64,000 nucleotides of DNA from Archivesica marissinica (taxonomy: Eukaryota > Mollusca > Bivalvia > Venerida > Vesicomyidae), in the NCBI GenBank assembly GCA_014843695.1, contig CM026403.1, positions 5,785,281 through 5,849,280 of the forward strand, given 5' to 3'. The position numbers and the translations under genes were made by a program. The stretch's first letter is position 1; every line of letters begins with the position of its first letter. The notes under the pieces were generated by a model, which saw nothing but the letters and a program-made list of their open reading frames with translations, did not search any database and was not told the origin of the DNA. Below are positions 1 through 63,807 of this stretch, one piece after another.

Positions 1-3000
1 ATACACAGCCAGGAATACAACCATGTTACATGGCAATACACAGCACGGAATACAACCATGTTACATGACAATACACAGCACGGAATACAACCCTGTTACA
101 TGACAATGCACAGCACGGAATACAACCATGTTACATGACAATACACAGCACGGAATACAACCATGTTACATGACAATACACAACCAGGAATACAACCATT
201 TTACATGACAATACACAGCCGGGAATACAACCATGTTACATGACAATACACAACACGGAATACAACCATGTTACATGACAATTCACAGCACTGAATACAA
301 CCATGTTACATGACAATACACAGCCAGGAATACAACCATTTTACATGACAATACATAGTACGGAATACAACCATGTTACATGGCAATACACAGCACGGAA
401 TACAACCATGTTACATGACAATACACAGCCAGGAATACAACATATTACATAGCAATACACAGCACGGAATACAACCATGTTACATGACAATACACAGCAA
501 GGAATACAACCATGTTACATGACAATACACAGCCAGGAATATAACCATGTTAAATGACAATACACAGCACGGAATACAACCATGTTACATGACAATACAT
601 AGCCAGGAATACAACCATGTTACATAGCAATACACAGCACGGAATACAACCATGTTACATGACAATACACCACACGGAATACAACCATGTTACATGACAA
701 TACACAGCACGGAATACAACCATGTTACATGACAATACACAGCACGGAATACAACCATGTTACATGACAATACACAGCACGGAATACAACCATGTTACAT
801 GAAAATACACAACACGGAATACAACCATGTTACATGACAATACACAGCCAGGAATACAACCATATTACATGACAATTCACAGCACTGAATACAACCATGT
901 TACATGACAATACACAGCCAGGAATACAACCATTTTACATGACAATACATAGTACGGAATACAACCATGTTACATGGCAATACACAGCACGGAATACAAC
1001 CATGTTACATGACAATACACAGCCAGGAATACAAACATATTACATAGCAATACACAGCACGGAATACAACCATGTTACATGACAATACACAGCAAGGAAT
1101 ACAACCATGTTACATGACAATACACAGCCAGGAATATAACCATGTTACATGACAATACACAGCACGGAATACAACCATATTACATGACAATACATAGCCA
1201 GGAATACAACCATGTTACATAGCAATACACAGCACGGAATACAACCATGTTACATGACAATACACAACATGGAATACAACCATGTTACATGACAATACAC
1301 AGCCAGGAATACAACCATGTTACATGACAATACACAACACGGAATACAACCATGTTACATGACAATACACCACACGGAATACAACCATGTTACATGACAA
1401 TACACAGCACGGAATACAACCATGTTACATGACAATACACAACACGGAATACAACCATGTTACATGACAATACACCACACGGAATACAACCATGTTACAT
1501 GACAATACACAGCACGGAATACAACCATGTTACATGAAAATACACAACACGGAATACAACCATGTTACATGACAATTCACAGCACTGAATACAACCATGT
1601 TACATGACAATACACAACCAGGAATACAACCATGTTACATGACAATACACAGCCAGGAATACAACCATGTTACATGACAATACATAGTACGGAATACAAC
1701 CATGTTACATGGCAATACACAGCACGGAATACAACCATGTTACATGACAATACACAGCCAGGAATACAAACATATTACATAGCAATACACAGCACGGAAT
1801 ACAACCATGTTACATGACAATACACAGCAAGGAATACAACCATGTTACATGACAATACACAGCCAGGAATATAACCATGTTACATGACAATACACAGCAC
1901 GGAATACAACCATGTTACATGACAATACATAGCCAGGAATACAACCATGTTACATAGCAATACACAGCACGGAATACAACCATGTTACATGACAATACAC
2001 AACATGGAATACAACCATGTTACATGAAAATACATAGCCAGGAATACAACAATGTTACATGACAATACACAACACGGAATACAACCATGTTACATGACAA
2101 TACACAGCATGGAATACAACCATGTTACAGGACAATACACAGCACGGAATACAACCATGTTACATGACAATACACAGCACGGAATACAACCATGTTACAG
2201 GACAATACACAGCACGGAATACAACCATGTTACATGACAATACACAACACGGAATACAACCATGTTACATGACAATACACAGCACGGAATACAACCATGT
2301 TACATGACAATACACAGCCAGGAATACAACCATGTTACATGACAATACACTGCACGGAATACAACCATGTTACATGACAATACACAGCACGGAATACAAC
2401 CATGTTACATGACAATACACAACCAGGAATACAACCATGTTACATGACAATACACAGCCAGGAATACAACCATGTTACATGATAATACACAGCACGGAAT
2501 ACAACCATGTTACATGGTAATACACAGCACGGAATACAACCATGTTACATGGCAATACAAAGCACGGAATACAACCATGTTACATGACAATACACAGCAC
2601 GGTATACAACATGTTACATGACAATACACAACACGGAATACAACCATGTTACATGACAATACACAGCACGGAATATAACCATGTTACATGACAATACACA
2701 GCACGGAATACAACCATGTTACATGACAATACACAGCACGGAATACAACCATGTTACATGACAATACACAGCACGGAATACAACCATGTTACATGACAAT
2801 ACACAGCACGGAATACAACCCTGTTACATGACAATACACAGCACGGAATACAACCATGTTACATGACAATACACAGCACGGAATACAACCATGTTACATG
2901 ACAATAAACAACCAGGAATACAACCATGTTACATGACAATACACAGCACGGAATACAACCATGTTACATGGCAATACACAGCCAGGAATACAACCATGTT

Positions 3001-3526
3001 ACATGACAATACACAGCACGGAATACAACCATGTTACATGGTAATACACAGCACGGAATACAACCATGTTACATGGCAATATACAGCACGGAATACAACC
3101 ATGTTACATGACAATACACAGCACGGAATACAACCATGTTACATGACAATACACAGCACGGAATACAACCATGTTACATGACAATACACAGCCAGGAATA
3201 CAACCATGTTACACGGCAATACACAGCCAGGAATACAACCATGTTACATGACAATACACAGCCAGGAATACAACCATGTTACATGACAATACACAGCACG
3301 GAATACAACCATGTTACACGACAATACACAGCACGGAATACAACCATGTTACATGGCAATACACAGCCAGGAATACAACCATGTTACATGGCAATACACA
3401 GCACGGAATACAACCATGTTACATGGCAATACACAGCCAGGAATACAACCATGTTACACGACAATACACAGCACGGAATACAACCATATTACACGACAAT
3501 ACACAGCACGGAATACAACCATGTTA
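1..3526. repeat. 35-bp minisatellite, array A
   Basis: About 100 head-to-tail copies of a 35-bp unit that begins ATGTTACATGACAATACACA. Common variants are TGGCAATACA for TGACAATACA and AGCCAGGAA for AGCACGGAA. The array runs off the left edge, so its true length is unknown. A rare variant containing CATATTACATAGCAATACAC occurs at about 441, 1036 and 1771. The last two are 735 bp (21 units) apart and the first two 595 bp (17 units), which shows higher-order duplication. Short open frames of 61-160 codons on the + strand are produced by the 105-bp (3 x 35) reading cycle and are not genes. The right end is cut by a family A SINE. Confidence 0.97.
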
Positions 3527-3816
3527 GTGTGCTTTTACGTTTATTTATCGTCGCTACCGGTTGCCCATATGAGCGACGCCTCCTGAAGAGATTAGTTATT
3601 TTAGAATTTGGAGGATAGTGCAATGACACAGACAGAGACCCATTCCAGAATATCCTCTGGTTCTTTTACGTGCACGGTGTACAGCATCGACACGAGACCT
3701 CGGTTTAACGTCCCATCTGAAAGACTATTAATTGTATTAAGGTCAGACGGGGGATCGAACCTGCGATCCCTGGATTACCAGTCCAGCGTGTTACCACTGG
3801 ACTACATATCCGTCTG
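3527..3816 (-). mobile_element. SINE family A, full length
   Basis: A tRNA-derived SINE on the minus strand. Read in its own direction it has a head with A box TAGTCCAGTGG, a stem-loop CTGGACTGGTAATCCAG with loop bases in the position of a GGT (Thr) anticodon, and B box GGTTCGATCC. A body of about 160 bp follows, then a tail hairpin (CGTCGCT...AGCGACG) ending ATAAATAAACGTAAAA. It lies inside a terminal 35-bp unit: GTTA precedes it and GTTACATGACAATA follows it, which suggests a short target duplication. The T-stem does not pair well, so this is not a functional tRNA gene. I cannot assign the family to a named database entry. Confidence 0.9.
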
Positions 3817-4304
3817 TTACATGACAATAGACGATTTGCACAGGCGTATTGCAGTTAACACTAAGAGAAGATAATTTCGAATAACATTAGTTGCATTACA
3901 TGTAAAGGTTACCTCCCATATATTACAATATGTCATGGGATGTGTGGATGTTTTCCCAAGCTTCGTATGATGGATGACATCACGTACGATGGTGTGAAAT
4001 ACTTTATTTTATACAGCTTTGGAGGTGGAAGCAAGGCACCGGGAATATTCTGTTTAGCGAATACGAATAGTTTATTCAGTATTAAACATTCCATAACAAT
4101 GTGTATAACCTACACAACTAGAATACATAAGTATATAATACAGTATGTAAACGGGTGTAGGACAATAATCCCCGGACAATACCCCCCATATAGTTTGACA
4201 TAGGCGGACAATATCCCCCATCAAAATGTCAAGGCGGACAATATCCCCATGTGGAAAATCACAGGGCGGACCTATACAGAAAAAAGGTTGTTATTTATAA
4301 GTTA
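3817..4304. other. Unique segment, copy 1 of a recent duplication
   Basis: Non-repetitive sequence with no convincing gene. Together with the SINE before it, it matches 10511-11287 with about three differences in 780 bp. An 87-codon open frame (3940-4203, +) is present in both copies, but it has no recognisable domain and its conservation follows from the recent duplication. Homology stops at about 4304, just after TTATTTATAAGTTA. The last 100 bp hold two GGACAATATCCCC units in the opposite orientation to the array that follows. Confidence 0.85.
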
Positions 4305-5213
4305 ACAAGGGTGGTGGATAATGTTTGGGGGGATATAGTCCTACCCGTGAATTCCAATGGGGGATATATGTCCGCCTTATGATTTTCCATGGGGGTATTT
4401 TCCGCCCTGTCTTTCTGATGGGGGAATATTGTCCGCCTGTGTCAAAATATATGGGGGGGGGATATTGTCCGGAGGGTGGGATATTGTCCGCCTATAGGGA
4501 GGAGGGATATTGTCCGCCTATATGGAGGGGGATATTGTCCGCCTATAGGGAGGGGATATTGTCCGGGGGATATTGTCCACCTATATGGAGCGGTGATATT
4601 GTCCGGAGGGATATTGTCCGGGGGATATTTTCCGCCTATAGGGAGAGGGATATTGTCCGCCTATAGGGAGGGGGGATATTGTCCGGGGGATATTGTCCGG
4701 GGGGGATATTTTCCGGGGGGATATTGTCGGGGGGATATTGTCCGGGGGATATTGTCTGGGAGGGGATATTGTCCGGGGGATATTGTCCGCCTATAGGGAG
4801 GGGATATTGTCCGGGGGGATATTGTCCAAGGGGATATTGTCCGGGGGGATATTGTCCGCCTATAGGGAGGGGATATTGTCCGGGATATTGTCCGCCTATA
4901 GGGAGGGTGGGATATTGTCCGGGGGGATATTGTCCGCCTATAGGGAGGGGGATATTGTCCGGGGGGATATTGTCCGGGGGATATTGTCCTGGGGGATATT
5001 GTCCGGGGGATATTGTCCAGGGGATATTGTCCGGGGGGATATTGTCCGGGGGATATTGTCCGGGGGGATATTGTCCAGGGGGATATTGTCCGGGGGGATA
5101 TTGTCCGGGGGATATTGTCCTGGGGGATATTGTCCGGGGGATATTGTCCAGGGGATATTGTCCGGGGGGATATTGTCCGGGATTATTGTCCGGGGGATAT
5201 TGTCCCGGGGACA
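4305..5213. repeat. G-rich 14-bp array (GGGGGATATTGTCC) with spacer variants
   Basis: About 55 copies of a short unit GGGGGATATTGTCC, some followed by GCCTATAGGGAGG. Unit length varies from 13 to about 27 bp. Runs of four to seven G recur every 9-10 bases on the + strand, so G-quadruplexes are possible. Units in reverse orientation (GGACAATATCCCC) sit at about 4147-4250, giving an inverted arrangement around a short spacer. Proline/glycine-rich open frames on both strands are artefacts. The array abuts a LINE 3' end on its right. Confidence 0.95.
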
Positions 5214-5237: not shown

Positions 5238-5297
<60 letters not shown>

Positions 5298-5467
5298 TAT
5301 AGGTTCTCTACTTTTCAGCTTTAACATTACTATATAATTCCAATATGCAGTTTTCACTTATAGTCCTATCATTTGATTTGTATATATGTTGAGGGCCTCG
5401 TGGTAAATTATCTTGTGTTAAATGAGTTCTCTCGTAAAATAAAGTCTTTATTATTATTATTATTATA
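5217..5467 (+). mobile_element. 5'-truncated LINE 3' end
   Basis: This matches the 3' end of the LINE at 20263-22574. Shared blocks include ATCATCATATTCCAT, TTTTCAGCTTT, TGTATATATGTTGAGGGCCT and AATAAAGTCTTTATTATTATT. It ends in the same (ATT)n tail. An (AT)n tract has expanded inside it at 5240-5293. It carries no coding sequence. Strong 5' truncation is normal for non-LTR elements copied by target-primed reverse transcription. Confidence 0.88.
5240..5293. repeat. (AT)n microsatellite
   Basis: An uninterrupted AT dinucleotide run of about 54 bp inside the truncated LINE copy. Confidence 0.99.
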
Positions 5468-5905
5468 AACATTTTGAAGATCATTAGCAAGATAAGTCAC
5501 TATAGAATCCATTAATTGACTAGAAGTTGAAAGAGTCGTGTCATCTGCAATATTTCACCCCAAAAATGTTCCATTTTTAGTTCCATCTGTAGCGTGCTTT
5601 TTTGTGTGACTAATGTTCATATGAGCTTTCATTCAGTATGAAAATATCAACTTTTGCAATTAGTTTGAACCTAATATCTATATTGACTGGAATATTATCA
5701 TACAAAGTAAGTACGGTTTTCCTGTTATCTTCGAGTAGGCCTAGATGCGTTTCAATGTCATTGCCGTTTTAATTAGTGTAGAAAAGTGTAGCGATTTGTC
5801 AGCAAGGATTTTATCTCAGTATATGTTTCGTCTGTGTACACTGTCACTGTTATTGCATATGTCTTAGAAGACTATTTACATTCATATAAAACACCTTCAT
5901 TTGTT
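5468..5905. other. Non-coding; right part duplicated at 63.4 kb
   Basis: No gene is visible. From about 5708 (GTACGGTTTTCCTGTTATCT) to the SINE at 5906 the sequence matches 63078-63569, where a family A SINE has been added. Shared landmarks are TGTTTCGTCTGTGTACACTG and CTTAGAAGACTATTTACATT. It is therefore a dispersed or segmental repeat. The left part (5468-5707) has no recognised content. Confidence 0.8.
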
Positions 5906-6076
5906 AAGCTTTATTTATTTTACAACGATTGCGAAGCAAGTTTTAACAACTTATATTAATCACTCTTGTTGGCTCGGATGAAAGCGTATAATTATGTGGT
6001 CATTCATGTGGGAGGAAACCGGAGTACCCGGAGAAAACTCACCTGTCCGATCTGGCGATCATCGTACCATCTCACA
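5906..6076 (-). mobile_element. SINE family C, 3' portion (split copy)
   Basis: This is the 3' part of a family C SINE on the minus strand, from the AATAAAGCTT-type tail to the body ending at ATCTCACA. It contains the reverse complement of GGTTTTCTCCGGGTACTCCG (one mismatch). The rest of the same SINE, including its tRNA-like head, resumes at 11816. The SINE was split by the element at 6077-11815. Confidence 0.92.
6069..6076. repeat. Target site duplication ATCTCACA, left
   Basis: An 8-bp sequence immediately left of the inverted-repeat element. It is repeated exactly at 11816-11823. In unsplit family C copies it occurs once (for example CCATCTCACATACTTC near 63732), so it is a true target duplication. 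Confidence 0.92.
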
Positions 6077-7017
6077 CACAGGGATTCGGCACGTTTGTGG
6101 GTACTAGTCAGGCCCGTCGCTGGGCATACGCAAGTACGCACGTGCGTATCATTGGTCTCAGAAAATGAAAAAATCCAAAAATGCAATAAAACCCCAGGGG
6201 GGTAGTAGGGATACATAGGCGCCGTGATGTGTGGAATGGTGGAATAATATAACCCACTGCAAATATGGTGCATCTCGAAATTTAGTGTGTGCTATTTTAC
6301 GTGCTTGTTTAATTGATAATGGCGATAGATCATGTATATTATACATCTAGCCTTAATTTATACCTTTCTACGGATTGTCGTAAGAACTTTAGTCCTGTAC
6401 GTTACAAAATGCACTAAAATGCAGGAAATTGCTTCCTCATTTCAAACAATTTCAGGGGAGGGGCATGCCCCCGGACCCCCCTAGCGTACTAGCTCGCTAT
6501 GATCACTCGACAAACAAGCATATTTGACCGTGCGTATCATAAAAATAGCTCCAGCGACGGCCCTGCTAGTATATATATTTAAGTACAGGGATAATACTCT
6601 GTGGGATGTCAGATTTCGCATCGATCAGTAAAATGGCCCTATCTGAAACAATTTTGTACAAAGCTGTCCAAATATAACGCCTATCCCGAGTCTTTATATT
6701 GTTCTTCAAATAAAACACAACTTTAAGCTGCATGCATGTATACTTTGCAAACAATTGCCCCAAACATTGGCCATAGCAGGTCACATTTCCGTACTAGGAC
6801 ACGGGTTCTGTCAGCAACAAAAACAATCTTCGACGGGAGAGTTTTAACTGTGAATAACATTATCAATAAAATGTGTTTCCACTAACGTGTAGGTTTATTC
6901 GGCAAAAATGTACGTCAAAAAGAGATTTCGTAGCATTTTCAATTTGTTTTGAAAAATTCTAAAGCGGCGCAATTCACGTTGATACGAGCGTTGAAACGAG
7001 CGTTCTGATTGGATTAT
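6077..7017. repeat. Left terminal inverted-repeat arm (interrupted)
   Basis: The reverse complement of 11335-11815 once the insertion at 6109-6565 and one CTAGT are removed. It ends at TTCTGATTGGATTAT. A 72-codon open frame (6566-6784, minus) appears in both arms with two substitutions. It has no known domain and most likely reflects arm conservation, not coding. Confidence 0.9.
6109..6565. mobile_element. 457-bp MITE with 15-bp terminal inverted repeats
   Basis: Left end CAGGCCCGTCGCTGG and right end CCAGCGACGGCCCTG are inverted repeats with one mismatch. CTAGT is duplicated on each side (6104-6108 and 6566-6570). The uninterrupted site exists once in the opposite arm (ACTAG at 11784-11788), which proves the insertion. 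Internally it has the palindrome TACGCACGTGCGTA (6135-6148) and GGGCATGCCCCCGGACCCCC near the right end. CAGGSCCG-type ends suggest a hAT-like origin. A 5-bp duplication is unusual for hAT apart from the hAT5 group, so the superfamily stays open. There is no coding capacity. Confidence 0.9.
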
Positions 7018-7029
7018 TAGAATGTAACA
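7012..7029. repeat. 18-bp direct repeat at left cargo junction
   Basis: GATTATTAGAATGTAACA occurs here, next to the left arm, and again at 11288-11305, next to the right arm. The two copies bracket the minisatellite cargo. Removing the cargo and one copy would leave a continuous 50-60-bp loop between the arms. Confidence 0.8.
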
Positions 7030-10000
7030 GGAATACAACCATGTTAAATGGTAATACACAGCCAGGAATACAACCATGTTACATTACAATACACAGCCAG
7101 CAATACAACTATGTTACATGACAATACACAGCGCGGAATACAACCATGTTACATTGCAATACACAGCACGGAATACAACCATGTTACATTGCAATACACA
7201 GCACGGAATACAACCATGTTACATGACAATACACAGCACGGAATACAACCATGTTACATGACAATACACAGCCAGGAATACAACCATGTTACATGGCAAT
7301 ATACAGCACGGAATACAACCATGTTACATGGCAATATACAGCACGGAATACAACCATGTTACATGACAATATACAGCACGGAATACAACCATGTTACATG
7401 GCAATATACAGCACGGAATACAACCATGTTACACGGCAATACACAGCACGGAATACAACCATGTTACATGACAATACACAGCACGGTATGCAACATGTTA
7501 CATGACAATACACAGCCAGGAATACAACCATGTTACACGGCAATACACAGCCAGGAATACAACCATGTTACATGACAATACACAGCACGGAATACAACCA
7601 TGTTACATGGCAATACACAGCCAGGAATACAACCATGTTACATGACAATACACAGCCAGGAATACAACCATGTTACATGACAATACACAGCCAGGAATAC
7701 AACCATGTTACATGGCAATACACAGCCAGGAATACAACCATGTTACATGACAATACACAGCCAGGAATACAACCATGTTACATGACAATACACAGCCAGG
7801 AATACAACCATGTTACATGACAATACACAACCAGGAATACAACCATGTTACATGCCAATACACAGCACGGAATACAACCATGTTACATGACAATACACAG
7901 CCAGGAATACAACCATGTTACATGACAATACACAGCACGGAATACAACCATGTTACATGGCAATACACAGTCAGGAATACAACCATGTTACATGACAATA
8001 CACAACCAGGAATACAACCATGTTACATGACAATACACAGCCAGGAATACAGCCATGTTACATGACAATACACAACCAGGAATACAACCATGTTACATGA
8101 CAATACACAGCCAGGAATACAACCATGTTACATGACAATACACAGCCAGGAATACAACCATGTTACATGACAATACACAGCCAGGAATACAACCATGTTA
8201 CAGGACAATACACAGCACGGAATACAACCATGTTACATGACAATACACAGCACGGAATACAACCATGTTACATGACAATACACAGCACGGAATACAACCA
8301 TGTTACATGACAATACACAGCCAGAAATACAACCATGTTACATGACAATACACAGCACGGAATACAACCATGTTACAGGACAATACACAGCACGGAATAC
8401 AACCATGTTACATGACAATAAACAGCCAGAAATACAACCATGTTACATGACAATACACAGCACCGAATACAACCATGTTACATGACAATACACAGCACGG
8501 AATACAACAATGTTACATGACAATACACAGCATGGAATACAACCATGTTACATGACAATACACAGCGCGGAATACAACCATGTTACATTGCAATACACAG
8601 CACGGAATACAACCATGTTACATTGCAATACACAGCGCGGAATACAACAATGTTACATGACAATACACAGCATGGAATACAACCATGTTACATGACAATA
8701 CACAGCACGGAATACAACCATGTTACATGGTAATACACAGCACGGAATACAACCATGTTACATGGCAATATACAGCACGGAATACAACCATGTTACATGA
8801 CAATACACAGCACGGAATACAACCATGTTACATGACAATACACAGCACGGAATACAACCATGTTACATGACAATACACAGCACGGAATACAACCATGTTA
8901 CATGGCAATACACAGCACGGAATACAACCATGTTACATGGCAATACACAGCCAGGAATACAACCATGTTACATGGCAATACACAGCACGGAATACAACCA
9001 TGTTACATGGCAATACACAGCCAGGAATACAACCATGTTACATGACAATACACAGCCAGGAATACAACCATGTTACATGACAATACACAGCACGGAATAC
9101 AACCATGTTACATGACAATACACAACCAGGAATACAACCATGTTACATGACAATACACAGCCAGGAATACAGCCATGTTACATGACAATACACAACCAGG
9201 AATACAACCATGTTACATGACAATACACAGCCAGGAATACAACCATGTTACATGACAATACACAGCCAGGAATACAACCATGTTACATGACAATACACAG
9301 CCAGGAATACAACCATGTTACATGACAATACACAGCACGGAATACAACCATGTTACATGACAATACACAGCACGGAATACAACCATGTTACATGACAATA
9401 CACAGCACGGAATACAACCATGTTACATGACAATACACAGCCAGAAATACAACCATGTTACATGACAATACACAGCACGGAATACAACCATGTTACAGGA
9501 CAATACCCAGCACGGAATACAACCATGTTACATGACAATAAACAGCCAGAAATACAACCATGTTACATGACAATACACAGCACCGAATACAACCATGTTA
9601 CATGACAATACACAGCCAGGAATACAACCATGTTACATGACAATAAACAGCATGGAATACAACCATGTTACATGACAATGCACAGCACGGAATACAACCA
9701 TGTTAAATGACAATACACAGCACGGAATACAACCATGTTACATGGCAATACACAACCAGGAATACAACCATGTTACATGGCAATACACAGCACGGAATAC
9801 AACCATGTTACATGACAATACACAGCACGGAATACAACCATGTTACATGACAATACACAGCACGGAATACAACCATGTTACATGACAATACACAGCACGG
9901 AATACAACCATGTTACATGGCAATACACAGCACGGAATACAACCATGTTACATGACAATACACAGCCAGGAATACAACCATGTTACATGACAATACACAG

Positions 10001-10510
10001 CACGGAATACAACCATGTTACATGGCAATACACAGCACGGAATACAACCATGTTACATGGCAATATACAGCACGGAATACAACCATGTTACATGACAATA
10101 CACAGCACGGAATACAACCATGTTACATGACAATACACAGCACGGAATACAACCATGTTACATGACAATACACAGCACGGAATACAACCATGTTACATGA
10201 CAATACACAGCACGGAATACAACCATGTTACATGGCAATATACAGCACGGAATACAACCATGTTACATGACAATACACAGCACGGAATACAACCATGTTA
10301 CATGACAATACACAGCCAGGAATACAACCATGTTACATGGCAATACACAGCCAGGAATACAACCATGTTACATGGCAATATACAGCACGGAATACAACCA
10401 TGTTACATGACAATACATAGCACGGAATACAACCATGTTACATGACAATACATAGCACGGAATACAACCATGTTACATGACAATACACAGCACGGAATAC
10501 AACCATGTTA
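7030..10510. repeat. 35-bp minisatellite, array B
   Basis: About 99 copies of the same 35-bp unit as array A. It has private variants (ACATTGCAATACACAG, AGCCAGAAATACAACC). The block with CCAGAAATAC variants at about 8300-8485 recurs at 9420-9605, an offset of 1120 bp or 32 units, so the array also expanded by multi-unit duplication. It forms most of the cargo of the inverted-repeat element and ends at a family A SINE exactly as array A does. Confidence 0.97.
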
Positions 10511-10800
10511 GTGTGCTTTTACGTTTATTTATCGTCGCTACCGGTTGCCCATATGAGCGACGCCTCCTGAAGAGATTAGTTATTTTAGAATTTGGAGGAT
10601 AGTGCAATGATACAGACAGAGACCCATTCCAGAATATCCTCTGGTTCTTTTACGTGCACGGTGTACAGCATCGACACGAGACCTCGGTTTAACGTCCCAT
10701 CTGAAAGACTATTAATTGTATTAAGGTCAGACGGGGGATCGAACCTGCGATCCCTGGATTACCAGTCCAGCGTGTTACCACTGGACTACATATCCGTCTG
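10511..10800 (-). mobile_element. SINE family A, full length (duplicate of 3527-3816)
   Basis: Same structure, flanking junctions and insertion point as the copy at 3527-3816, with a single base change within the element (GATACAG for GACACAG). It moved with the neighbouring array and segment and did not insert independently. Confidence 0.93.
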
Positions 10801-11287
10801 TTACAAGACAATAGACGATTTGCACAGGCGTATTGCAGTTAACACTAAGAGAAGATAATTTCGAATAACATTAGTTGCATTACATGTAAAGGTTACCTCC
10901 CATATATTACAATATGTCATGGGATGTGTGGATGTTTTCCCAAGCTTCGTATGATGGATGACATCACGTACGATGGTGTGAAATACTTTATTTTATACAG
11001 CTTTGGAGGTGGAAGCAAGGCACCGGGAATATTCTGTTTAGCGAATACGAATAGTTTATTCAGTATTAAACATTCCATAACAATGTGTATAACCTACACA
11101 ACTAGAATACATAAGTATATAATACAGTATGTAAACGGGTGTAGGACAATAATCCCCGGACAATACCCCCCATATAGTTTGACATAGGCGGACAATATCC
11201 CCCATCAAAATGTCAAGGCGGACAATATCCCCTGTGGAAAATCACAGGGCGGACCTATACAGAAAAAAGGTTGTTATTTATAAGTTA
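10801..11287. other. Unique segment, copy 2 of the duplication
   Basis: Near-identical to 3817-4304; the visible differences are GTTACAAGAC for GTTACATGAC and one base missing in ATCCCCTGTGG. The match ends at AAGTTA, where element sequence (GATTATTAGAATG) begins. No gene is recognised. Confidence 0.88.
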
Positions 11288-11334
11288 GATTATTAGAATG
11301 TAACAAGATGTTTTTTTATATATGAAGAATAACC

Positions 11335-11815
11335 ATAATCCAATCAGAACGCTCGTCTCAACGCTCGTATCAACGTGAATTGCGCCGCTTTAGAATTTTT
11401 CAAAACAAATTGAAAATGCTACGAAATCTCTTTTTGACGTACATTTTTGCCGAATAAACCTACACGTTAGTGGAAACACATTTTATTGATAATGTTATTC
11501 ACAGTTAAAACTCTCCCGACGAAGATTTTTTTTTTGTTGCTGACAGAACCCGTGTCCTAGTACGGAAATGTGACCTGCTATGGCCAATGTTTGTGGCAAT
11601 TGTTTGCAAAGTATACATGCATGCAGCTTAAAGTTGTGTTTTATTTGAAGAACAATATAAAGACTCGGGATAGACGTTATATTTGGACAGCTTTGTACAA
11701 AATTGTCTCGGATAGGGCCATTTTACTGATCGATGCGAAATCTGACATCCCACAGAGTAGAATCCCTGTACTTAAATATATATACTAGTACCCCCAAACG
11801 TGCCGAATCCCTGTG
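11335..11815. repeat. Right terminal inverted-repeat arm
   Basis: The uninterrupted 481-bp arm that pairs with 6077-7017. It holds the empty target site for the nested MITE (11784-11788). Confidence 0.9.
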
Positions 11816-11899
11816 ATCTCACATACTTCACGGTCCGAGGATCGAACCCGGGTCGTATTAGTGAGAATCAAGCGTGCTAACGACTGCGCTAATCGGACC
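11816..11899 (-). mobile_element. SINE family C, tRNA-like head (split copy)
   Basis: Continues the SINE interrupted at 6076. It begins with the second ATCTCACA and contains, in reverse complement, the B box GGTTCGATCCTCGGAC and the A-box region TTAGCGCAGTCGTTAGC. Confidence 0.92.
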
Positions 11900-13624
11900 T
11901 TCATTTGAATCCTCAACAAATGAATTTTGACTCATAGCTGCTCTATATAGATGGAAACATTATCAGCTTGATGCGCGAATATAGATATATAGCTTTCCCC
12001 CCTAAAGCAATACAATCAAGTGCACCACATGCGTCCAACTAACGCAGCCGGCCATTCTACATTAATAAGCGTCTATAAACATAGTGTGCTTTCTGACAAT
12101 CACATCCCGAACGATTATTACACATCACTTTTAATATAATTGTGTACACATTACATAATTATGCATGTTCATCAACAACGTACACACATTATTTCCCGCT
12201 ACAAGCAGTACATTCATATAACATTCACATTTTAACCGGTGTAGATTTTTCGGATGCTTACAATAGATGTGTTTGATTGTCCTGTATCCGGCTGCATATT
12301 ACTATTGAACATGCATGACGATCAATGAGAATCGCTAATTGCCTATTACCTCCTTTGGCAGATAAAGTCTGTTTTATTCCAAAATGCAAAATGTGAATAG
12401 GTCCTTTTAGTTAGAATCCTTTGTTTTTACTGTTGTTACCTAACCAGAGATTGCGACATGATAAATGTGATGTTATCAAAATCATGTTAATTAACTGATA
12501 ACATTCTTTTACAAATAAGTACTCATTGCATATACTGTATGGGATCTGTTCAGATCTAATAATTTAATACTCATAAGAAGCGATAGTGGGATAACATTGC
12601 TAGCATGTTGTGCAAAGGAATAAACGATAAAAACAGAGGAAACACTTAATAGGACCTATCTACTTTTAGGGAGTATTCAGGGGCAGTAACTCACCGATAC
12701 CTCTCATTATTTCCTACAATGTTTTCCTACAATCTCCAGTTACAATTTTATAAATATGCTAATTTCGCAACAAGTCGTATCACCAAATGAAAAGTGTATT
12801 TTACTATACAATCGGTCGATCAATCAGAGGTCGTACTAATCTATGGTAGTTATTAGGTCCTATGCACTTTCTGGATATTTATTTGTAGAAAATATCTTTT
12901 GGAATCACAGATGTAACCAAAAATGTTAAGCTCATTTTCCACAAACCGCAAACATGGTATTAGAGCATTGGAATGTTAACGCGAAGATATGTAGCTTATA
13001 GACTATTTACTGTACAGAATCGGAAACGGACACTGTAAAAACCGTGCTTCGTAGTCTACATCGGCATGCACATATCATCAATTGATTCTAGACAATAATT
13101 ACGTGGAAATGTTGCAGACCTAGTTATGACAAGTGGGTTAGGCAAGAATAATCTATGTTATGCAAATAAATCCACAATCCGAGCTTTCAAAGGAAGTGCC
13201 AGGATCGGCTTTGACGATTGATCAATTTAAAATAATACAGACCAAGCCTTGAAGTGCATACCAAAGTTCAACAAAGATTAGTTAGTTAGTACTATTGTTT
13301 TCTGAATTCTGCGTGACGTTAAAAACTAGCGGCAAGGTTTTGTTTGTCTTGTACCGGATTACCGGACACAGTGTAATAGTACGGCACGATTAAAATACGA
13401 AGTAAGCCACATCGAAATTAAATTAATTATATATGCAATGAACTAATATTATTAATTGAAACGGACCGTATTATATGAATATCCGATTTAAATACTTAAA
13501 TATGGACCATATCACACACACATACACTGCACTATATCGACCATTGATCAAAACGGGGTAAAATCTGAAACGTTTAGTTTATTTCCCTATATTAATGATA
13601 TAGTACTGTTAACGGAATGATGTG
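11900..13624. other. 1.7 kb without recognised features
   Basis: AT-rich sequence with stops in all frames. I see no repeat, RNA gene or convincing open frame in it. Confidence 0.6.
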
Positions 13625-20262: not shown

Positions 20263-22170
20263 ATAAACAAATATCAGATAAGTTTAAAATATGGAGACAA
20301 AAAGTCAAATCACTTATATTTACCTCAAAGCATAATTACTACACCACACATATTAACTCGAATAAACACAATCCGAAACAATTATGGAGCAGCCTAAATG
20401 AATTATCAGGACTGAACAATAAATCTCAAACACAATACCTACATGATGAACATGGATGTAAAATAGTAAATGCTAACTATACGGCCACTATTTTTAATGA
20501 ACATTTCTGTAATATTCATAGGCAGTTTCAGTCTGATAACCCACCACCGCACTACTCTAACTTTGCACTTGAAACTACAACAACACTAAATTGTCAAACA
20601 TATCTAGATTTTCTATTCCCTTAGTATCTGTGCAGTTTGTTGAAAAACAACTTCTTTCACTTGATGTATCTAAATCAACGGGCTCTGATAATTTACATGC
20701 CAGATTCTTAAAGCTTTCTGCCAAAATCATTGCTCCAATTTTAACACAAATATTCGATTCTAGCATAAACTCCAATAAATTTCCCAAAGCATTTAAATTA
20801 GCCAGAGTTATACCCATTCACAAAAAAGGTGACAAATCAGATAAAAATAATTACAGACCTATATCAATATTACCTGTTATGTCATTGATTTTTGAGCGCC
20901 ATGTCAGCCTTCACTTGAAACAATTTCTCGAGGAACATAATTTATTATATAATCGACAGTCCGGATTCCGTGAAAATCATTCATGTCAAACTGCCCGTAC
21001 ACGCTTACTGGATGACTGGATATCAGCAATTGATAAGAATGAAGTAGTGGTCACAGTCTTTCTGGATCTTTCCAAAGCCTTTGATCTGGTTGATCATTCT
21101 ATCTTAATACGTAAATTAGCTTATTATGGTCTTGCTGAATCATCACAAAATTGGTTTTCCTCATACTTAGCTGACAGGTTCCAACAAACGAATGTTTCTG
21201 GTGCTCATTCTGATGCTGGATCTGTTGTTTCTGGTGTTCCTCAGGGGTCTGTCTTAGGTCCCATTCTCTTTATAATTTACATCAATGACTTACCTATGAC
21301 TCCTACCAGCACAGTTGCAGACATATTTGCTGACGATACAACTATATCTGCCTCCGATCAATCTCTTGACACTCTTACTACTTCTTTATCTACTGATCTG
21401 ATAAATGTTCAACAGTGGTGTTTAGACAATCGTATGATTCTCAATACTTCTAAGACCAAAATCATGTATATTTCCTCTAAATCAAAAGCTCATAGTATCA
21501 GTGAGTCTGCTCTTGAAGTGAAAGTGAACAACACCGTCATACATCCGAGTTCTGCTGAACGACTACTCGGAGTTATGATTGACAACACACTATCCTGGGA
21601 TAAGCATACTGACAATGTTTTAAAAAATGTAACTCTTATTTATATTTATTGTCTCGTATAAAAAGGTATCTCTCTATTCCCAATCGCAACCTCTTCTACA
21701 ATGCTTACATATTGCCTCACTTAGACTTTTGTTGTGTGATTTGGGGTAACTGCAACTCATCTTTAGAAGATAAAATAGTTCGGTTACAAAAGAGAGCAGC
21801 TAGACTAATTCTAGATCAGGACTTTGACACTCCATCGCAATTATTATTCTCCCAACTAAAATGGATGACCTTTCCAGAACGAGTCATATATCAGAAGGCT
21901 ATACAACTGTATAAAACATTACATGGAGCTGCTCCAGACTATTTAAAATCGTCCTTCACTTTTACTTCTGATATACATCCTAGAATTCTTAGATCAACCT
22001 CAGAATATCAATTATACACACCAAGACAAAATTGTGAATTATTTCGTAATACATTTGAATTTTCAGGATCATCTATTTGGAATTCATTGCCTCACTCAGT
22101 TCAAAATGCTCCAACTATCCAACAGTTCAAAATTCTCTACTTAAGGTGGAACTATAACAATTCAAACTAA
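20263..22170 (+). pseudogene. Reverse transcriptase of the LINE, two frameshifts
   Basis: The product would copy element RNA into DNA at a nicked target. The frame is broken twice: near 20580-20600 and in the A-run at about 21622-21627, where one A appears to be missing. In the middle frame (20591-21661, 356 codons) the fingers motif NYRPISILP is at residues 87-95, motif A FLDLSKAFD at 157-165, motif B SGVPQGSVLGP at 214-224 and the catalytic FADD at 246-249. The third frame (to 22170) carries the C-terminal region with LDFCCVIWG and LQKRAARLI, typical of this superfamily. All catalytic aspartates are present, but the frameshifts and the missing endonuclease mean it is dead. Confidence 0.93.
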
Positions 22171-22574
22171 TCGCGTACTTCTACTGTTATTATAAACGTG
22201 TATTGCCATTGCTATATTTATTAGAATCGGAATATTGCTGTCCTTAAGTTGATTTCATACATATTTTGAAGATACCACTACAAGTCAAATCTGCACATTG
22301 TTAGATAGATCTAGTATCATTAATTGTCTCATTCCCATTTTCTACTCTGCTAGCCAATTCCATATAATTATCATCATATTCCATTACATATTAAATATAG
22401 TTTCTCTATTTTTCAGCTTTTACATTGCTATATTATTCCAATGTGCAGTTCTCACTTATAGTGCTATCTTTTGATTGCATTTGATTGTATATATGTTGAG
22501 GGCCTCATGGTAGATTAACTTTTGTTAAATGAGTACTCTCGTTAAATAAAGTCTTTATTATTATTATTATTATT
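20263..22574 (+). mobile_element. Non-LTR retrotransposon (LINE), 5' truncated
   Basis: A 2.3-kb element with a reverse transcriptase coding region, a 3' UTR of about 380 bp containing TATATATGTTGAGGGCCTCA, and an (ATT)n tail at about 22552-22574. No endonuclease domain remains, so the 5' half is lost. It sits inside a family B SINE: GTTACA ends the SINE at 20257-20262, and GTTACAGTTGTAT follows the tail at 22575, suggesting a 6-bp target duplication. Protein motifs and the microsatellite tail fit the CR1/L2/Rex/Daphne side of the Jockey-CR1 superfamily; the clade is an inference. A second 3' end lies at 5217-5467, so the family was active more than once. Confidence 0.92.
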
Positions 22575-23718: not shown

Positions 23719-24051
23719 CACACGGTCACCGTCTACCGACGTGTTAGATTTAGATTAAGAATATCATTCAGATGCACTAGTGTGAGACACGGATATTCAA
23801 TTACGTCATCCATTCGATTCATGAATGTACGTATGTCGAGCGAAAATAGTATCAATGTTGAAAATAGACAACGTGTTCTCGATTCAAATATGTTCAGTTT
23901 TACATCATAAAAACATTTTTGCTTTTGATCTTAGCAAAAATAATAATCATTATTTAAACCACAAATATACACCATGAGATAGTTAAATACCAGTCTTTAC
24001 TTGGTGGTAAGGGTGACGGTATTGCACATGGACGGAACTAGCTGGAAACCA
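23719..24051. other. Spacer without recognised features
   Basis: Unique sequence of about 330 bp before the 36-bp satellite. No gene is recognised. Confidence 0.5.
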
Positions 24052-30049: not shown

Positions 30050-31049
30050 NNNNNNNNNNNNNNNNNNNNNNNNNNNNNNNNNNNNNNNNNNNNNNNNNNN
30101 NNNNNNNNNNNNNNNNNNNNNNNNNNNNNNNNNNNNNNNNNNNNNNNNNNNNNNNNNNNNNNNNNNNNNNNNNNNNNNNNNNNNNNNNNNNNNNNNNNNN
30201 NNNNNNNNNNNNNNNNNNNNNNNNNNNNNNNNNNNNNNNNNNNNNNNNNNNNNNNNNNNNNNNNNNNNNNNNNNNNNNNNNNNNNNNNNNNNNNNNNNNN
30301 NNNNNNNNNNNNNNNNNNNNNNNNNNNNNNNNNNNNNNNNNNNNNNNNNNNNNNNNNNNNNNNNNNNNNNNNNNNNNNNNNNNNNNNNNNNNNNNNNNNN
30401 NNNNNNNNNNNNNNNNNNNNNNNNNNNNNNNNNNNNNNNNNNNNNNNNNNNNNNNNNNNNNNNNNNNNNNNNNNNNNNNNNNNNNNNNNNNNNNNNNNNN
30501 NNNNNNNNNNNNNNNNNNNNNNNNNNNNNNNNNNNNNNNNNNNNNNNNNNNNNNNNNNNNNNNNNNNNNNNNNNNNNNNNNNNNNNNNNNNNNNNNNNNN
30601 NNNNNNNNNNNNNNNNNNNNNNNNNNNNNNNNNNNNNNNNNNNNNNNNNNNNNNNNNNNNNNNNNNNNNNNNNNNNNNNNNNNNNNNNNNNNNNNNNNNN
30701 NNNNNNNNNNNNNNNNNNNNNNNNNNNNNNNNNNNNNNNNNNNNNNNNNNNNNNNNNNNNNNNNNNNNNNNNNNNNNNNNNNNNNNNNNNNNNNNNNNNN
30801 NNNNNNNNNNNNNNNNNNNNNNNNNNNNNNNNNNNNNNNNNNNNNNNNNNNNNNNNNNNNNNNNNNNNNNNNNNNNNNNNNNNNNNNNNNNNNNNNNNNN
30901 NNNNNNNNNNNNNNNNNNNNNNNNNNNNNNNNNNNNNNNNNNNNNNNNNNNNNNNNNNNNNNNNNNNNNNNNNNNNNNNNNNNNNNNNNNNNNNNNNNNN
31001 NNNNNNNNNNNNNNNNNNNNNNNNNNNNNNNNNNNNNNNNNNNNNNNNN
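30050..31049. other. Assembly gap, 1000 N
   Basis: Exactly 1000 N, a conventional placeholder. The satellite enters from the left, while unrelated sequence follows. The real missing length is unknown and the join itself is unproven. Confidence 0.99.
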
Positions 31050-35512: not shown

Positions 35513-36272
35513 AGTTCTATTCGGGTGTCGGTGCCTGACATAATGCTCTGATGGGACACCCGCTGTCTTCTTCCATCAATTATAGCTGGAGAGTCGCCAC
35601 ATGGTCTACCTGTTGGTGCGTTGTATTCGGGTGTCGGTGCCTGACATAATGCTCTGGAGAGTCGCCACATGGTCTACCTGTTGGTGCGTTGTATTCGGGT
35701 GTCGGTGCCTGACATAATGCTCTGGAGAGTCGCCACATGGTCTACCTGTTGGTGCGTTGTATCCGGTTGCTGGTGCCTGACATAATGCTCTGGAGAGTCG
35801 CCACATGGTCTACCTGTTGGTGCGTTGTATTTGGGTGTCGGTGCCTGACATAATGCTCTGGAGAGTCGCCACATGGTCTACCTGTTGGTGCGTTGTATTC
35901 GGGTGTCGGTGCCTGACATAATGCTCTGGAGAGTCGCCACATGGTCTACCTGTTGGTGCGTTGTATCCGGGTGCTGGTGCCTGACATAATGCTCTGGAGA
36001 GTCGCCACATGGTCTACCTGTTGGTGCGTTGTATTCGGGTGTCGGTGCCTGACATAATGCTCTGGAGAGTCGCCACATGGTCTACCTGTTGGTGCGTTGT
36101 ATCCGGGTGCTGGTGCCTGACATAATGCTCTGGAGAGTCGCCACATGGTCTACCTGTTGGTGCGTTGTATCCGGGTGTCGGTGCCTGACATAATGCTCTG
36201 ATGGGAGACCCGCTGTCTTCTTCCATCAATTATAGCTGGAGAGTCGCCACATGGTCTACGCTGTTGGTGCGA
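35513..36272. repeat. 68-bp minisatellite with special end units
   Basis: Eight to nine 68-bp units containing GGTGCCTGACATAATGCTCT and AGTCGCCACATGGTCTACCT, with a TATTCGGGTGTC/TATCCGGGTGCT switch. Both the first and the last unit carry the same extra stretch of about 40 bp with CCGCTGTCTTCTTCCATCAA (35560 and 36210). This looks like internal amplification between two copies of a longer ancestral unit. Confidence 0.95.
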
Positions 36273-38127: not shown

Positions 38128-38684
38128 TGCCCGTGAGAATCCGTCGTACGTGATCAAAGCGGAAGCAGAGCTTATATAGTTTCTCTCCTTGGACATGCGT
38201 GACATTTGTCTAAGGCGCTTGCCCGTGAGAACCCGTCTTACGTGAAGGTACATGGCATTTGTCTAAGGCGCTTGCCCGTGAGAATCCGTCTTACGTGAAG
38301 GTGCATGGCATGTGTCTAAGGCGCTTGCCCGTGAGAACCCGTCGTACGTGAAGGTGCATGACATTTGTCTAAGGGGCTTGCCCGTTAGAATCCGTCGTAC
38401 GTGAAGGTGCATGACATTTGTCTAAGGCGCTTGTCCGTGAGAATCCGTCGTACGTGAAGGTGCATGCCATTTGTCTAAGGCGCTTGTCCGTGAGAACCCG
38501 TCGTACGTGAAGGTGCATGACATTTGTCTAAGGGGCTTGCCCGTGAGAATCCGTCGTACGTGAAGGTGCATGACATTTGTCTAAGGCGCTTGTCCGTGAG
38601 AACCCGTCGTACGTGAAGGTGCATGACATTTGTCTAAGGCGCTTGTCCGTGAGAACCCGTAGTACGTGAAGGTGCATGACATTT
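38128..38684. repeat. 53-bp tandem repeat, about 10 copies
   Basis: The unit contains TGCCCGTGAGAATCCGTCGT and GGTGCATGACATTTGTCTAA. The first unit is interrupted and more diverged. Confidence 0.94.
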
Positions 38685-43420: not shown

Positions 43421-43931
43421 CTTTAGATACATGTACACATTTAGGACCACGGACTACTTTAGATACATGTACACATTTAGGACCACGGACTACTTTAGAT
43501 ACATGTACACATTTAGGACCACGGACTACTTTAGATACATGTACACATTTAGGACCACGGACTACTTTAGATACATGTGTACACATTTAGGACCACGGAC
43601 TACTTTAGATACATGTACACATTTAGGACCACGGACTACTTTAGATACATGTACACATTTAGGACCACGGACTACTTTAGATACATGTACACATTTAGGA
43701 CCACGGACTACTTTAGATACATGTACACATTTAGGACCACGGACTACTTTAGATACATGTACACATTTAGGACCACGGACTACTTTAGATACATGTACAC
43801 ATTTAGGACAAACGGACTACTTTAGATACATGTACACATTTAGGACCACGGACTACTTTAGATACATGTACACATTTAGGACCACGGACTACTTTAGATA
43901 CATGTACACATTTAGGACCACGGACTACTTT
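43421..43931. repeat. 36-bp tandem repeat, about 14 copies
   Basis: The unit contains ACATGTACACATTTAGGACC and ACGGACTACTTTAGAT. One unit has two extra bases (ATGTGTACAC at 43575) and another reads ACAAACGG. It is unrelated to the 36-bp satellite at 24 kb. Confidence 0.96.
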
Positions 43932-54070: not shown

Positions 54071-54332
54071 CAGACGGATCTGTAGTCCAGTGGTAACACG
54101 CTGGACTGGTAATCCAGGGATCGCATGTTCGATGCCAAGTTCTGACCCTAATAAAAGTAACAGTTTTTCAGATGGGACATTAAACCGAGGTCACCTGTCG
54201 GTGCTGTACACCGCGCACGTAAAATAACCAGATGAGACTCTGGAATGGGTCTCTGTCTGTATCATTGCACACTCCTCCAAAAATCTAAAATTACTAATCT
54301 CTTCAGGAGGCGTCGCTCATATGGGCAACCGG
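54071..54332 (+). mobile_element. SINE family A ending at an array
   Basis: A plus-strand head, body and most of the tail hairpin, to CATATGGGCAACCGGT. There the 68-bp array starts and the AGCGACG half of the hairpin is missing. Confidence 0.9.
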
Positions 54333-54872
54333 TGTGCCGTGTCGGAGACAGACCTGGGTTGCCCATTCGAGCAGTATTTCAGGCACGGTCGGACAGTCGG
54401 TGTGCCGTGTCGGAGCAAGGCCTCGGTTGTCCATTCGAGCAATATTTCAGGCACGGTCGGACAGTATGGATGCCGTGTCGGAGCAGGACCTCGGTTGTTC
54501 ATTCGATCAGTATTTCAGGCACGGTCGGACAGTCTGGATGCGTGTCGGAGCAGGACCTCGGTTGCCCATTCGAGCAGTATTTCAGGCACGGTCGGACAGT
54601 CGGTGTGCCGTGTCGGAGCAAGGCCTCGGTTGTCCATTCGAGCAGTATTTGAGGCACGGTCGGACAGTCGGTGTGCCGTGTCGGAGCAGGACCTCGGTTG
54701 TTCATTCGATCAGTATTTCAGGCACGGTCGGACAGTCTGGATGCGTGTCGGAGCAGGACCTCGGTTGCCCATTCGAGCAGTATTTCAGGCACGGTCGGAC
54801 AGTCGGTGTGCCGTGTCGGAGCAGGACCTCGGTTGTTCATTCGAGCAGTATTTCAGACACGGTCGGTCACGC
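54333..54872. repeat. 68-bp tandem repeat, about 8 copies
   Basis: The unit contains CATTCGAGCAGTATTTCAGG and CACGGTCGGACAGT. Some units are 2-4 bp shorter. It begins at the SINE boundary. Open frames of up to 199 codons run through it in several frames and are not genes. It is unrelated to the 68-bp array at 35.5 kb. Confidence 0.95.
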
Positions 54873-63120: not shown

Positions 63121-63409
63121 TGTGTGTTTTACGTTTATTTATCGTCGCTACCGGTTGCCCATATGAGCGACGCCTCCTGAAGAAATTAGTCATTTTGGAT
63201 TTTGGAGGATAGTGCATGATACAGATAGAGACCCATTCCAGAGTCTCCTCTGGTTCTTTTACGTGCACGGTGTAAAGCACCGACACGAGACCTCGGTTTA
63301 ACGTCCCATCTGAAAGACTGTTAATTTTATTAGGGTCAGACGGGGGATCGAACCTGCGATCCCTGGATTACCAGTCCAGCGTGTTATCACTGGACTATAG
63401 ATCAGTCTG
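63121..63409 (-). mobile_element. SINE family A, full length, 11-bp target duplication
   Basis: A complete minus-strand copy. ATGCCTTTCAA (63108-63118) and ATGCGTTTCAA (63411-63421) flank it with one mismatch. The 5.7-kb paralogue has the same site without the SINE (GATGCGTTTCAATG at about 5744), so insertion came after the duplication. Confidence 0.95.
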
Positions 63410-63410
63410 T

Positions 63411-63569
63411 ATGCGTTTCAATGCCATTGACGTTTTAATTAGTACGAACAGTGTAGCGATTTGTCATCAAGGATTTTTATCCCAGTATATGTTTCGTCTG
63501 TGTACACTGTCATTGTTATTGCATCTGTCTTAGAAGACTATTTACATTCATATAAAACACCATTTTTTA
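63411..63569. other. Duplicated segment, right piece
   Basis: Matches 5745-5905 with scattered changes (for example TGTTTCGTCTGTGTACACTG). Confidence 0.85.
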
Positions 63570-63807
63570 AAGCTTTATTTATTTTACAACGACTGTGAAG
63601 CAAGTTTTAACAACTTATATTAATCACTCTCGTTGGCTCGGATGAAAGCGTATATGTTGTCATGCATGTGGGAGGAAACCGGAGTACCCGGAGAAAACCC
63701 ACTTGTCCGATCTGGCGACAACCGTACCATCTCACATACTTCTCAGTCCGAGGATCGAACCTGGGTCGCATTATTGAGAAGCGAGCGCGCTAACAATTGC
63801 GCTAATC
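63570..63807 (-). mobile_element. SINE family C, near full length (paralogue of the split copy)
   Basis: A complete body and head, ending GCGCTAAC...GCGCTAAT. It is the uninterrupted counterpart of the SINE split at 6076/11816 and shows a single ATCTCACA, the empty site. Confidence 0.93.

What the first reader, a model, noticed from the sequence alone, without database searches (positions are those of the whole stretch)
6069..11823. Base-precise 5.7-kb inverted-repeat transposon with a minisatellite as cargo
Two inverted arms of about 480 bp enclose a 3.5-kb 35-bp array, a SINE and a unique segment. The whole unit sits inside a SINE with an exact 8-bp duplication ATCTCACA, and an empty paralogous site exists at 63.7 kb. 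Short MITEs with tandem cores are known; an element moving kilobases of satellite plus another SINE is a plausible route for spreading satellites.
Basis: partly seen in the sequence, partly recalled or inferred. Interest (0 to 1): 0.85.

Follow-up and report, generated by a model that had tools for sequence, protein, structure and literature searches.

The report
Minisatellite copied into a transposon's loop
A one-kilobase, almost perfectly palindromic transposon sits in this animal-like DNA, and its loop appears to have been filled by a four-kilobase copy of the repeat array next door, which shows how a mobile element can pick up satellite DNA but not that the element ever moved it.

Summary
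The anatomy is confirmed. An element with inverted ends (6077-11815) lies inside a SINE-like repeat, flanked by an exact 8-bp duplication ATCTCACA. Six uninterrupted copies of that repeat lie in the same window.

The reading "transposon that carries a minisatellite as cargo" is only partly right. The inner 4,258 bp (array + SINE + 473 bp of flank, 7030-11287) has its own exact 18-bp duplication, GATTATTAGAATGTAACA, at 7012-7029 and 11288-11305. The same block lies 2.7 kb upstream (window 1-4304). Its non-array part matches at 775 of 778 alignment columns, and the match stops exactly at the duplication.

The best reading is that a 1,001-bp foldback element with a 41-nt loop was already present, and that its loop later received a copy of the neighbouring array. 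The anatomy resembles repair-mediated duplication: close donor, 18-nt duplication, no poly-A, at most 2 nt of microhomology. It is about seven times longer than the longest proximal case in the human survey I read. Loop cleavage as the trigger is inference.

Whether the composite has ever moved could not be tested: all 13 requests to the genome search did not complete. Novelty is a new variant of a known kind. Interest is moderate, because a donor-like copy, the acceptor and both element junctions can be read to the base.

The parts
5745..6068 (-). Left part of the target SINE-like repeat (family B); 5745-5903 is shared only with the copy at 63.4 kb
   Evidence: 5745-6076 is 91.0% over 333 columns to 63411-63736; five further copies match from 5904, 5906 or 5919 on. 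The tRNA-like head at its far end is my reading of the sequence, not a tool result.
6069..6076 (.). 8-bp target duplication ATCTCACA, left copy
   Evidence: exact copy at 11816-11823; single copy in the uninterrupted repeat at 63729-63736
6077..6108 (.). Outer end of the left arm, CACAGGGATTCGG...
   Evidence: 32-bp inverted match to 11784-11815, 97%
6104..6108 (.). 5-bp duplication CTAGT of the nested insert, left copy (right copy 6566-6570)
   Evidence: read directly; the uninterrupted right arm has it once
6109..6565 (.). Nested 457-bp insert with inverted ends CAGGSCCGTCGCTGG, probably another MITE
   Evidence: splits the left arm
6571..7017 (.). Rest of the left arm of the foldback element
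   Evidence: inverted match to the right arm
7012..7029 (.). 18-bp duplication GATTATTAGAATGTAACA, left copy (6 bp of stem plus 12 nt of loop)
   Evidence: exact copy at 11288-11305
7030..10510 (.). 35-bp minisatellite array, about 99 units
   Evidence: Tandem Repeats Finder, 94% matches
10511..10801 (-). SINE (family A), inserted near the right end of the array
   Evidence: 10511-10815 is 99.3% to 3527-3831 over 305 columns, and further full or partial copies lie in the window; one of them, at 54076-54143, just passes Rfam's tRNA threshold (30 bits, threshold 29)
10815..11287 (.). Right flank of the array, the last part of the captured block
   Evidence: 99.8% to 3831-4304 over 474 columns, match ends at 11287
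11288..11305 (.). 18-bp duplication, right copy
11306..11334 (.). Rest of the original 41-nt loop
   Evidence: 7018-7029 plus 11306-11334
11335..11815 (.). Right arm of the foldback element, 481 bp, uninterrupted
11816..11823 (.). 8-bp target duplication ATCTCACA, right copy
11824..11900 (-). Right part of the target SINE-like repeat
1..4304 (.). Donor-like copy of the captured block: array 1-3526, SINE 3527-3817, flank to 4304; runs off the left edge of the window
   Evidence: 3527-4304 against 10511-11287: 775 identities, 2 mismatches, 1 gap
4172..4472 (.). Inverted repeat around the donor end (arms 4172-4276 and 4365-4472); the captured block ends inside its spacer
   Evidence: 83.6% over 110 columns; fold of 4150-4490

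Best explanation
A non-autonomous foldback-type DNA transposon, 1,001 bp long when the later inserts are left out (two arms of about 480 bp around a 41-nt loop), inserted into a SINE-like repeat and made an 8-bp duplication. Later its loop, or the tip of its stem, was broken with a stagger of 18 nt. The break was repaired by inserting a copy of the minisatellite block that lies 2.7 kb upstream in the same orientation: array, SINE and 473 bp of flank, 4,258 bp in all. Filling in the stagger left the 18-bp duplication. The array then changed its unit order quickly in one or both copies. SHOWN by the sequence: both duplications, the intact ends, the donor-like copy, where identity stops. INFERRED: that the block came second and in place, that repair did it, and that the palindrome's tip was the weak point. 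The result is an element with intact ends around a satellite array, which could in principle move it later; nothing here shows that it has.
For: 18-bp exact direct repeat exactly at both edges of the block, against a longest match of 8 bp in 10,428 same-spacing control pairs. Leaving out the block, one copy of the repeat and the nested insert gives one continuous stem-loop. Identity to the donor-like copy ends at 4304/11287, exactly where the 18-mer begins, and that copy goes on into an inverted repeat whose other half the element lacks, so the upstream junction looks native. Donor and acceptor are close. Non-array divergence of the two block copies is 2 substitutions in 777 aligned bases, against 10 in 479 between the arms (Fisher p 0.0018), which fits a block younger than the palindrome. 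No poly-A or poly-T at either block end. A human survey that kept 824 proximal repair-mediated duplications gives donors within 5 kb and, among 39 inspected, a target duplication in 6 (range over the whole table 4-21 nt) and poly-A in none (PMC2671141, abstract, outline and passages read). For Galileo, another transposon with long inverted ends, nuclease cleavage at the loop was proposed for a breakpoint in its middle segment (PMC2775673, passages).
Against: The block is far longer than the proximal cases of that survey (maximum 619 bp; 3,424 bp for distant ones), and none of its 39 inspected proximal cases had a target duplication alone: 5 of the 6 also had microhomology and 1 had filler plus a deletion. 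Here microhomology is at most 2 nt (CA) at the left junction, where the matching donor unit cannot be identified, and none at the right, by my reading. The array units of the two copies are mostly not in the same order right up to the SINE, which a faithful recent copy would not show; only weak shared order remains (local alignment score 20.3 against a largest value of 17.3 in 200 shuffles). The arms need not have been identical when the element landed, so the dating argument is soft. A duplication overlapping the loop has a chance of about 6% if sites were random (58 of 984 start positions, hand count), so loop cleavage is not established by one event.
Confidence: 0.68

Rival explanations
1. 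The composite moved as one unit: the foldback element acquired the block somewhere else and then transposed here with its cargo.
For: The outer ends and the 8-bp duplication are intact and enclose everything; that transposons of 5.7 kb can move is recalled.
Against: A near-identical copy of the block lies 2.7 kb upstream; if the cargo had come from elsewhere this neighbour would be a coincidence, unless the donor locus or the composite is repeated genome-wide, which I could not test. Block divergence is lower than arm divergence. No second copy of the arms in the window.
Confidence: 0.17
2. The block was inserted by LINE-type target-primed reverse transcription of a read-through transcript; an 18-bp duplication is typical of that route (recalled).
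For: Size of the duplication; a LINE-like reverse transcriptase ORF lies at 20573-21658 in the same window (Pfam RVT_1, E 8e-32).
Against: No poly-A or other added tail at the right end: every base up to 11287 is also in the donor-like copy. Two stretches that I take for LINE 3' ends (5297-5466 and 22395-22573) end in TTA repeats, the block does not. In the survey poly-A/T was seen in 17 of 29 distant cases and in 0 of 39 proximal ones.
Confidence: 0.1
3. The block is an unrecognised mobile element (for example a Helitron-like one) with its own ends at 7030 and 11287.
For: In the Pacific oyster, arrays of all 13 studied clusters are cores of Helentron elements (PMC7492417, abstract and passages).
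Against: Helitrons and the Cg_HINE elements leave no target duplication; here there are 18 bp. (minimum length 20) lists no inverted ends for the block. The left edge is at a plain array unit. Of 22 arrays tested only this one has a flanking duplication that is not array or SINE sequence or a 12-mer.
Confidence: 0.08
4. Assembly artefact: one allele of the upstream locus was wrongly joined into the element.
For: The assembly is scaffolded, with exactly 1,000 N at 30050-31049 beside another array; arrays are hard to assemble.
Against: It needs two wrong joins that happen to leave an exact 18-bp target duplication and a near-perfect stem-loop when undone; the two arrays differ in unit order, so one is not a plain copy of the other.
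Confidence: 0.07

Closest known systems
[quoted passage not shown] 2009, PMC2671141; abstract, outline and passages read)
   Same: Donor within 5 kb on the same chromosome, acceptor inside a transposable element, a target duplication within the 4-21 nt range, no poly-A.
   Different: 4,258 bp instead of at most 619 bp for proximal cases; donor is mostly a minisatellite array; acceptor is the tip of a 1-kb palindrome; at most 2 nt of microhomology; probably not a vertebrate.
Foldback-type elements Galileo (PMC2775673, PMC3573991) and Tetris (PMC4079207); passages read
   Same: Long inverted arms, 7-bp (Galileo) or 8-10-bp (Tetris) target duplications; Tetris is linked to satellite arrays; loop cleavage was proposed for Galileo.
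   Different: In Tetris and Galileo the tandem repeats lie inside the arms (for Tetris they are thought to derive from arm sequence). Here the array lies in the loop, has a copy outside and has its own target duplication.
MITE thought to have captured a tandem repeat: miDNA4 (Xenopus, Scalvenzi and Pollet) as told in the review PMC12628747, passages read; the original was not read
   Same: A pre-existing tandem repeat inside a MITE, proposed to enter during replication or repair.
   Different: As told there, the case rests on flanking short direct repeats of 5 bp or more; here a donor-like copy, the acceptor and both junctions can be read.
Helentron-type HINE elements of the Pacific oyster (PMC7492417; abstract, one section and passages read)
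   Same: Non-autonomous element with a central minisatellite-like array.
   Different: No target duplication, insertion preference for TT, subterminal inverted repeats and a 3' palindrome; the element here has target duplications and true terminal inverted repeats. I did not search for subterminal repeats of the HINE type.

Membership tests
TIR DNA transposon (MITE / foldback type) | Terminal inverted repeats at both ends | tested here: met
TIR DNA transposon (MITE / foldback type) | Target duplication and a pre-insertion site | tested here: met
   8 bp; six uninterrupted repeat copies, octamer exact in three
TIR DNA transposon (MITE / foldback type) | Other copies in the genome and a transposase-bearing relative | not testable with these tools
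   No second copy in the window. The genome search did not complete. No exact match to two arm patterns in viral contigs; six 19-mer matches in genome contigs are in bacterial records and stop after 19-22 bp.
hAT or P superfamily | Transposase of that superfamily; end motif | not testable with these tools
   8-bp duplication fits both (recalled); the ends CACAG alone do not decide. A literature search for the end consensus strings listed 9 papers, none opened.
Helitron / Helentron (HINE) | No target duplication | tested here: not met
   8-bp duplication of the element, 18-bp duplication of the block
Repair-mediated duplication | Donor within 5 kb | tested here: met
   2,707 bp between 4304 and 7012, nested insert included
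Repair-mediated duplication | Signature of break repair at the junctions (duplication, deletion, filler or microhomology), no poly-A | tested here: met
   18-nt duplication, no poly-A, no filler; but a duplication without microhomology or filler was seen in 0 of 39 proximal cases of the survey
Repair-mediated duplication | Length in the range described for proximal cases (to 619 bp) | tested here: not met
   4,258 bp; so I call it a variant, not a plain member
LINE-mediated insertion | 3' tail (poly-A or short repeat) at one end | tested here: not met

The most novel reading that the evidence does not exclude
Palindromic foldback elements act as traps for tandem arrays: their hairpin tips break often, and repair fills them from whatever array is near. 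That makes satellite-loaded transposons with intact ends, able to carry the array elsewhere. In this reading the block's right end in the spacer of the donor's own inverted repeat is no accident, and hairpins set both ends of the copy.
Probability: 0.22. Interest if true: 0.72.

Novelty: new variant of a known kind. Interest (0 to 1): 0.47.

Why it matters
How satellite arrays get into transposons is, in the reviews I saw passages of, mostly argued from finished products. Here a donor-like copy, an acceptor, a target duplication and both junctions are within 12 kb, so the step can be read to the base. If it recurs, a simple local repair route would explain how satellites get onto mobile ends, and the question becomes testable by listing what sits in the loops of all copies of this element.

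Tried and rejected
Tandem duplication of the whole region: rejected, because the second block ends at 11287 and does not go on into donor sequence 4305 and beyond. Reverse direction (element to upstream locus): thought unlikely, because the upstream locus, as far as it lies in the window, has no trace of the arms or of the 18-mer and runs on into an inverted repeat that spans the junction. Its left end lies outside the window, so this is not excluded. A general habit of arrays here to carry flanking duplications: tested on 22 arrays; 5 of 22 had a shared exact word of 12 bp or more within 1 kb on either side, array parts skipped (at most four words printed per array). One is this one; 35586-36200 has a 52-bp word that belongs to a longer copy of unit end, 38-bp spacer and unit start on both sides; 38196-38684 and 54330-54866 share words that lie in family-A SINE copies; 43421-43931 shares two 12-mers that I take as chance. 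The first array (1-3526) could not be tested for lack of a left flank. Helitron reading: rejected on the duplications. Superfamily by end motif: a literature search listed 9 papers, none opened. Matches outside the genome: three scans of viral contigs gave 0; the one scan of genome contigs gave 6 bacterial records that match only 19-22 bp of the end. Host: the LINE search found 7,636 hits and lists 120; two of the 120 carry an organism name (Pinctada imbricata at 45% and a Candidatus Thiodiazotropha MAG at 43%), which hints at a bivalve and no more. ARAGORN, run with the bacterial code, found no tRNA. Novelty in print: a literature search with five terms on satellite-array capture found 0 papers, and no title or abstract start in the listings describes this arrangement; I opened nine papers in part, and the library lacks most subscription journals. 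Satovic and Plohl 2013 on clam MITEs was not held.
Full report
1. What is there. The window holds an element with inverted ends from 6077 to 11815. The outer 32 bp of both ends match in inverted orientation with one mismatch. The full arms, 479 and 481 bp, agree at 469 positions with 10 mismatches and one 2-nt gap, once a nested insert is left out. The element lies in a SINE-like repeat and is flanked by ATCTCACA on both sides. The joined flanks match six uninterrupted copies of that repeat in the same window at 82-92% identity across the junction; the octamer is exact in three of the six and has one changed base in the other three.

2. The nested insert. The left arm is interrupted at 6109-6565 by 457 bp with inverted ends (CAGGCCCGTCGCTGG and, on the other strand, CAGGGCCGTCGCTGG) and a 5-bp duplication CTAGT. 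It explains why the left arm is in two pieces.

3. The captured block. Between the arms lie a 35-bp array of about 99 units (7030-10510), a SINE at about 10511-10801 and 473 bp of flank found nowhere else in this window but in the upstream copy, save for its own CGGACAATATCCCC motif, which recurs at 4.3-5.2 kb. The block is bounded on both sides by the same 18 bases, GATTATTAGAATGTAACA, at 7012-7029 and 11288-11305. With up to three mismatches the window holds one further match, at 44.9 kb with three mismatches. As a control I took 10,428 pairs of non-array positions with the same spacing: the longest exact match that starts at such a pair is 8 bp. Leaving out the block, one copy of the 18-mer and the nested insert gives 1,001 bp that fold into one long stem with a short tip: the stem-loop of the original element, with 41 nt between the arms. 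Six of the 18 bases belong to the stem and twelve to the loop.

4. The donor-like copy. Window 3527-4304 matches 10511-11287 at 775 of 778 columns, with two substitutions and one 1-nt gap, and is preceded by an array with the same 35-bp consensus. The match ends at 4304/11287, the base before the right 18-mer. In the upstream copy the sequence then runs on through the second half of an inverted repeat (4172-4276 with 4365-4472, 83.6%), so the upstream junction looks original and the copy in the element looks cut. Within the window the upstream locus has no arms and no 18-mer; its left end is beyond the window.

5. The arrays. Written as strings of unit types, the two arrays (100 and 99 units, 65 types) share only one run of five or more identical units. 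Yet units differ about as much within an array (2.64 and 2.38 differences per pair) as between arrays (2.55), and the shared order is a little more than chance: best local score 20.3 against at most 17.3 in 200 shuffles (98 units of each array used, so two and one units were dropped as more than 8 differences from the consensus). I read this as one pool of units with fast turnover in one or both copies after duplication. It is also the main point against a simple recent copy, because the unit order differs right up to the SINE while the SINE itself hardly differs.

6. Order of events. The target repeat came first, the palindromic element second. The nested insert and the block came later, in unknown order. 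The block copy (2 substitutions in 777) looks younger than the arm divergence (10 in 479; Fisher p 0.0018), if the arms were identical at insertion, which is not known.

7. How it works. The duplication of 18 bp calls for a staggered break at the tip of the palindrome, filling-in, and insertion of a copy of nearby DNA. This is close to what Pace and colleagues named repair-mediated duplication: donors within 5 kb and, among 39 inspected proximal cases, a target duplication in 6 and poly-A in none (PMC2671141; abstract, outline and passages). Two points differ: the present block is far longer than their proximal maximum of 619 bp, and none of those 39 had a target duplication without microhomology or filler, whereas here at most 2 nt of microhomology can be argued for. 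Why the break fell at the tip is inference. Authors on Galileo proposed that long inverted ends form hairpins and that nucleases cut the loop (PMC2775673; passages). A duplication overlapping the loop has a chance of about 6% under random choice (hand count), and the donor's end also lies in the spacer of an inverted repeat; both are suggestive and both were noticed after the fact.

8. Alternatives. Cargo that arrived with the element: needs the near-identical neighbour to be a coincidence or a genome-wide repeat. LINE-type insertion: no tail at either end. Helitron: these leave no target duplication (PMC7492417). Assembly error: two wrong joins would have to leave an exact duplication; the N gap at 30050-31049 shows that the assembly is not gap-free, so reads should be checked.

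9. Against the known. Foldback elements with tandem repeats are known (Tetris, Galileo), but there the repeats lie in the arms (PMC4079207, PMC3573991; passages). A MITE that captured a tandem repeat was proposed for Xenopus miDNA4, according to a review (PMC12628747; passages). What seems new here is the legible event: donor-like copy, acceptor, both junctions and the duplication. Hence new variant of a known kind; the literature check behind this is limited to the searches named under what was tried.

10. What could not be done. So copy number, other loops, and any transposase-bearing relative remain unknown, and the superfamily is open.

Noticed in passing
window 1-64000: About 61% of the non-N bases (38,271 of 63,000) lie in 23 tandem arrays of many different unit lengths (array list taken by hand): a minisatellite-rich region.
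   Followed up: partly
30050-31049: A run of exactly 1,000 N next to the 36-bp array that begins at 24046: a scaffold gap of conventional size.
   Followed up: no
20573-22170: LINE-like remnant: reverse transcriptase domain (RVT_1, E 8e-32) in one ORF and an overlapping ORF in another frame without a Pfam match.
   Followed up: partly
5297-5466 and 22395-22573: Two copies of a stretch, 86.6% alike, that end in TTA repeats, perhaps the 3' end of the LINE family.
   Followed up: no
63122-63410: A family-A SINE inserted within a family-B repeat, with an imperfect duplication of about 11 bp (read).
   Followed up: no
4160-5211: The 14-bp motif GGGGATATTGTCCG forms an array beside inverted copies of itself; the boundary folds as a hairpin.
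   Followed up: partly
35558-36259: A 68-bp-unit array is bounded on both sides by the same stretch of unit end, 38-bp spacer and unit start, as if a longer repeat had been interrupted by array growth.
   Followed up: partly
11758-11815: A second copy of the end motif (TACAGGGATTC) lies 45 bp inside the right end, with two changed bases in the left arm; possibly a repeated transposase binding site.
   Followed up: no
7030-10510: The captured array has its own internal long-period repetition, strongest at a lag of 32 units.
   Followed up: no
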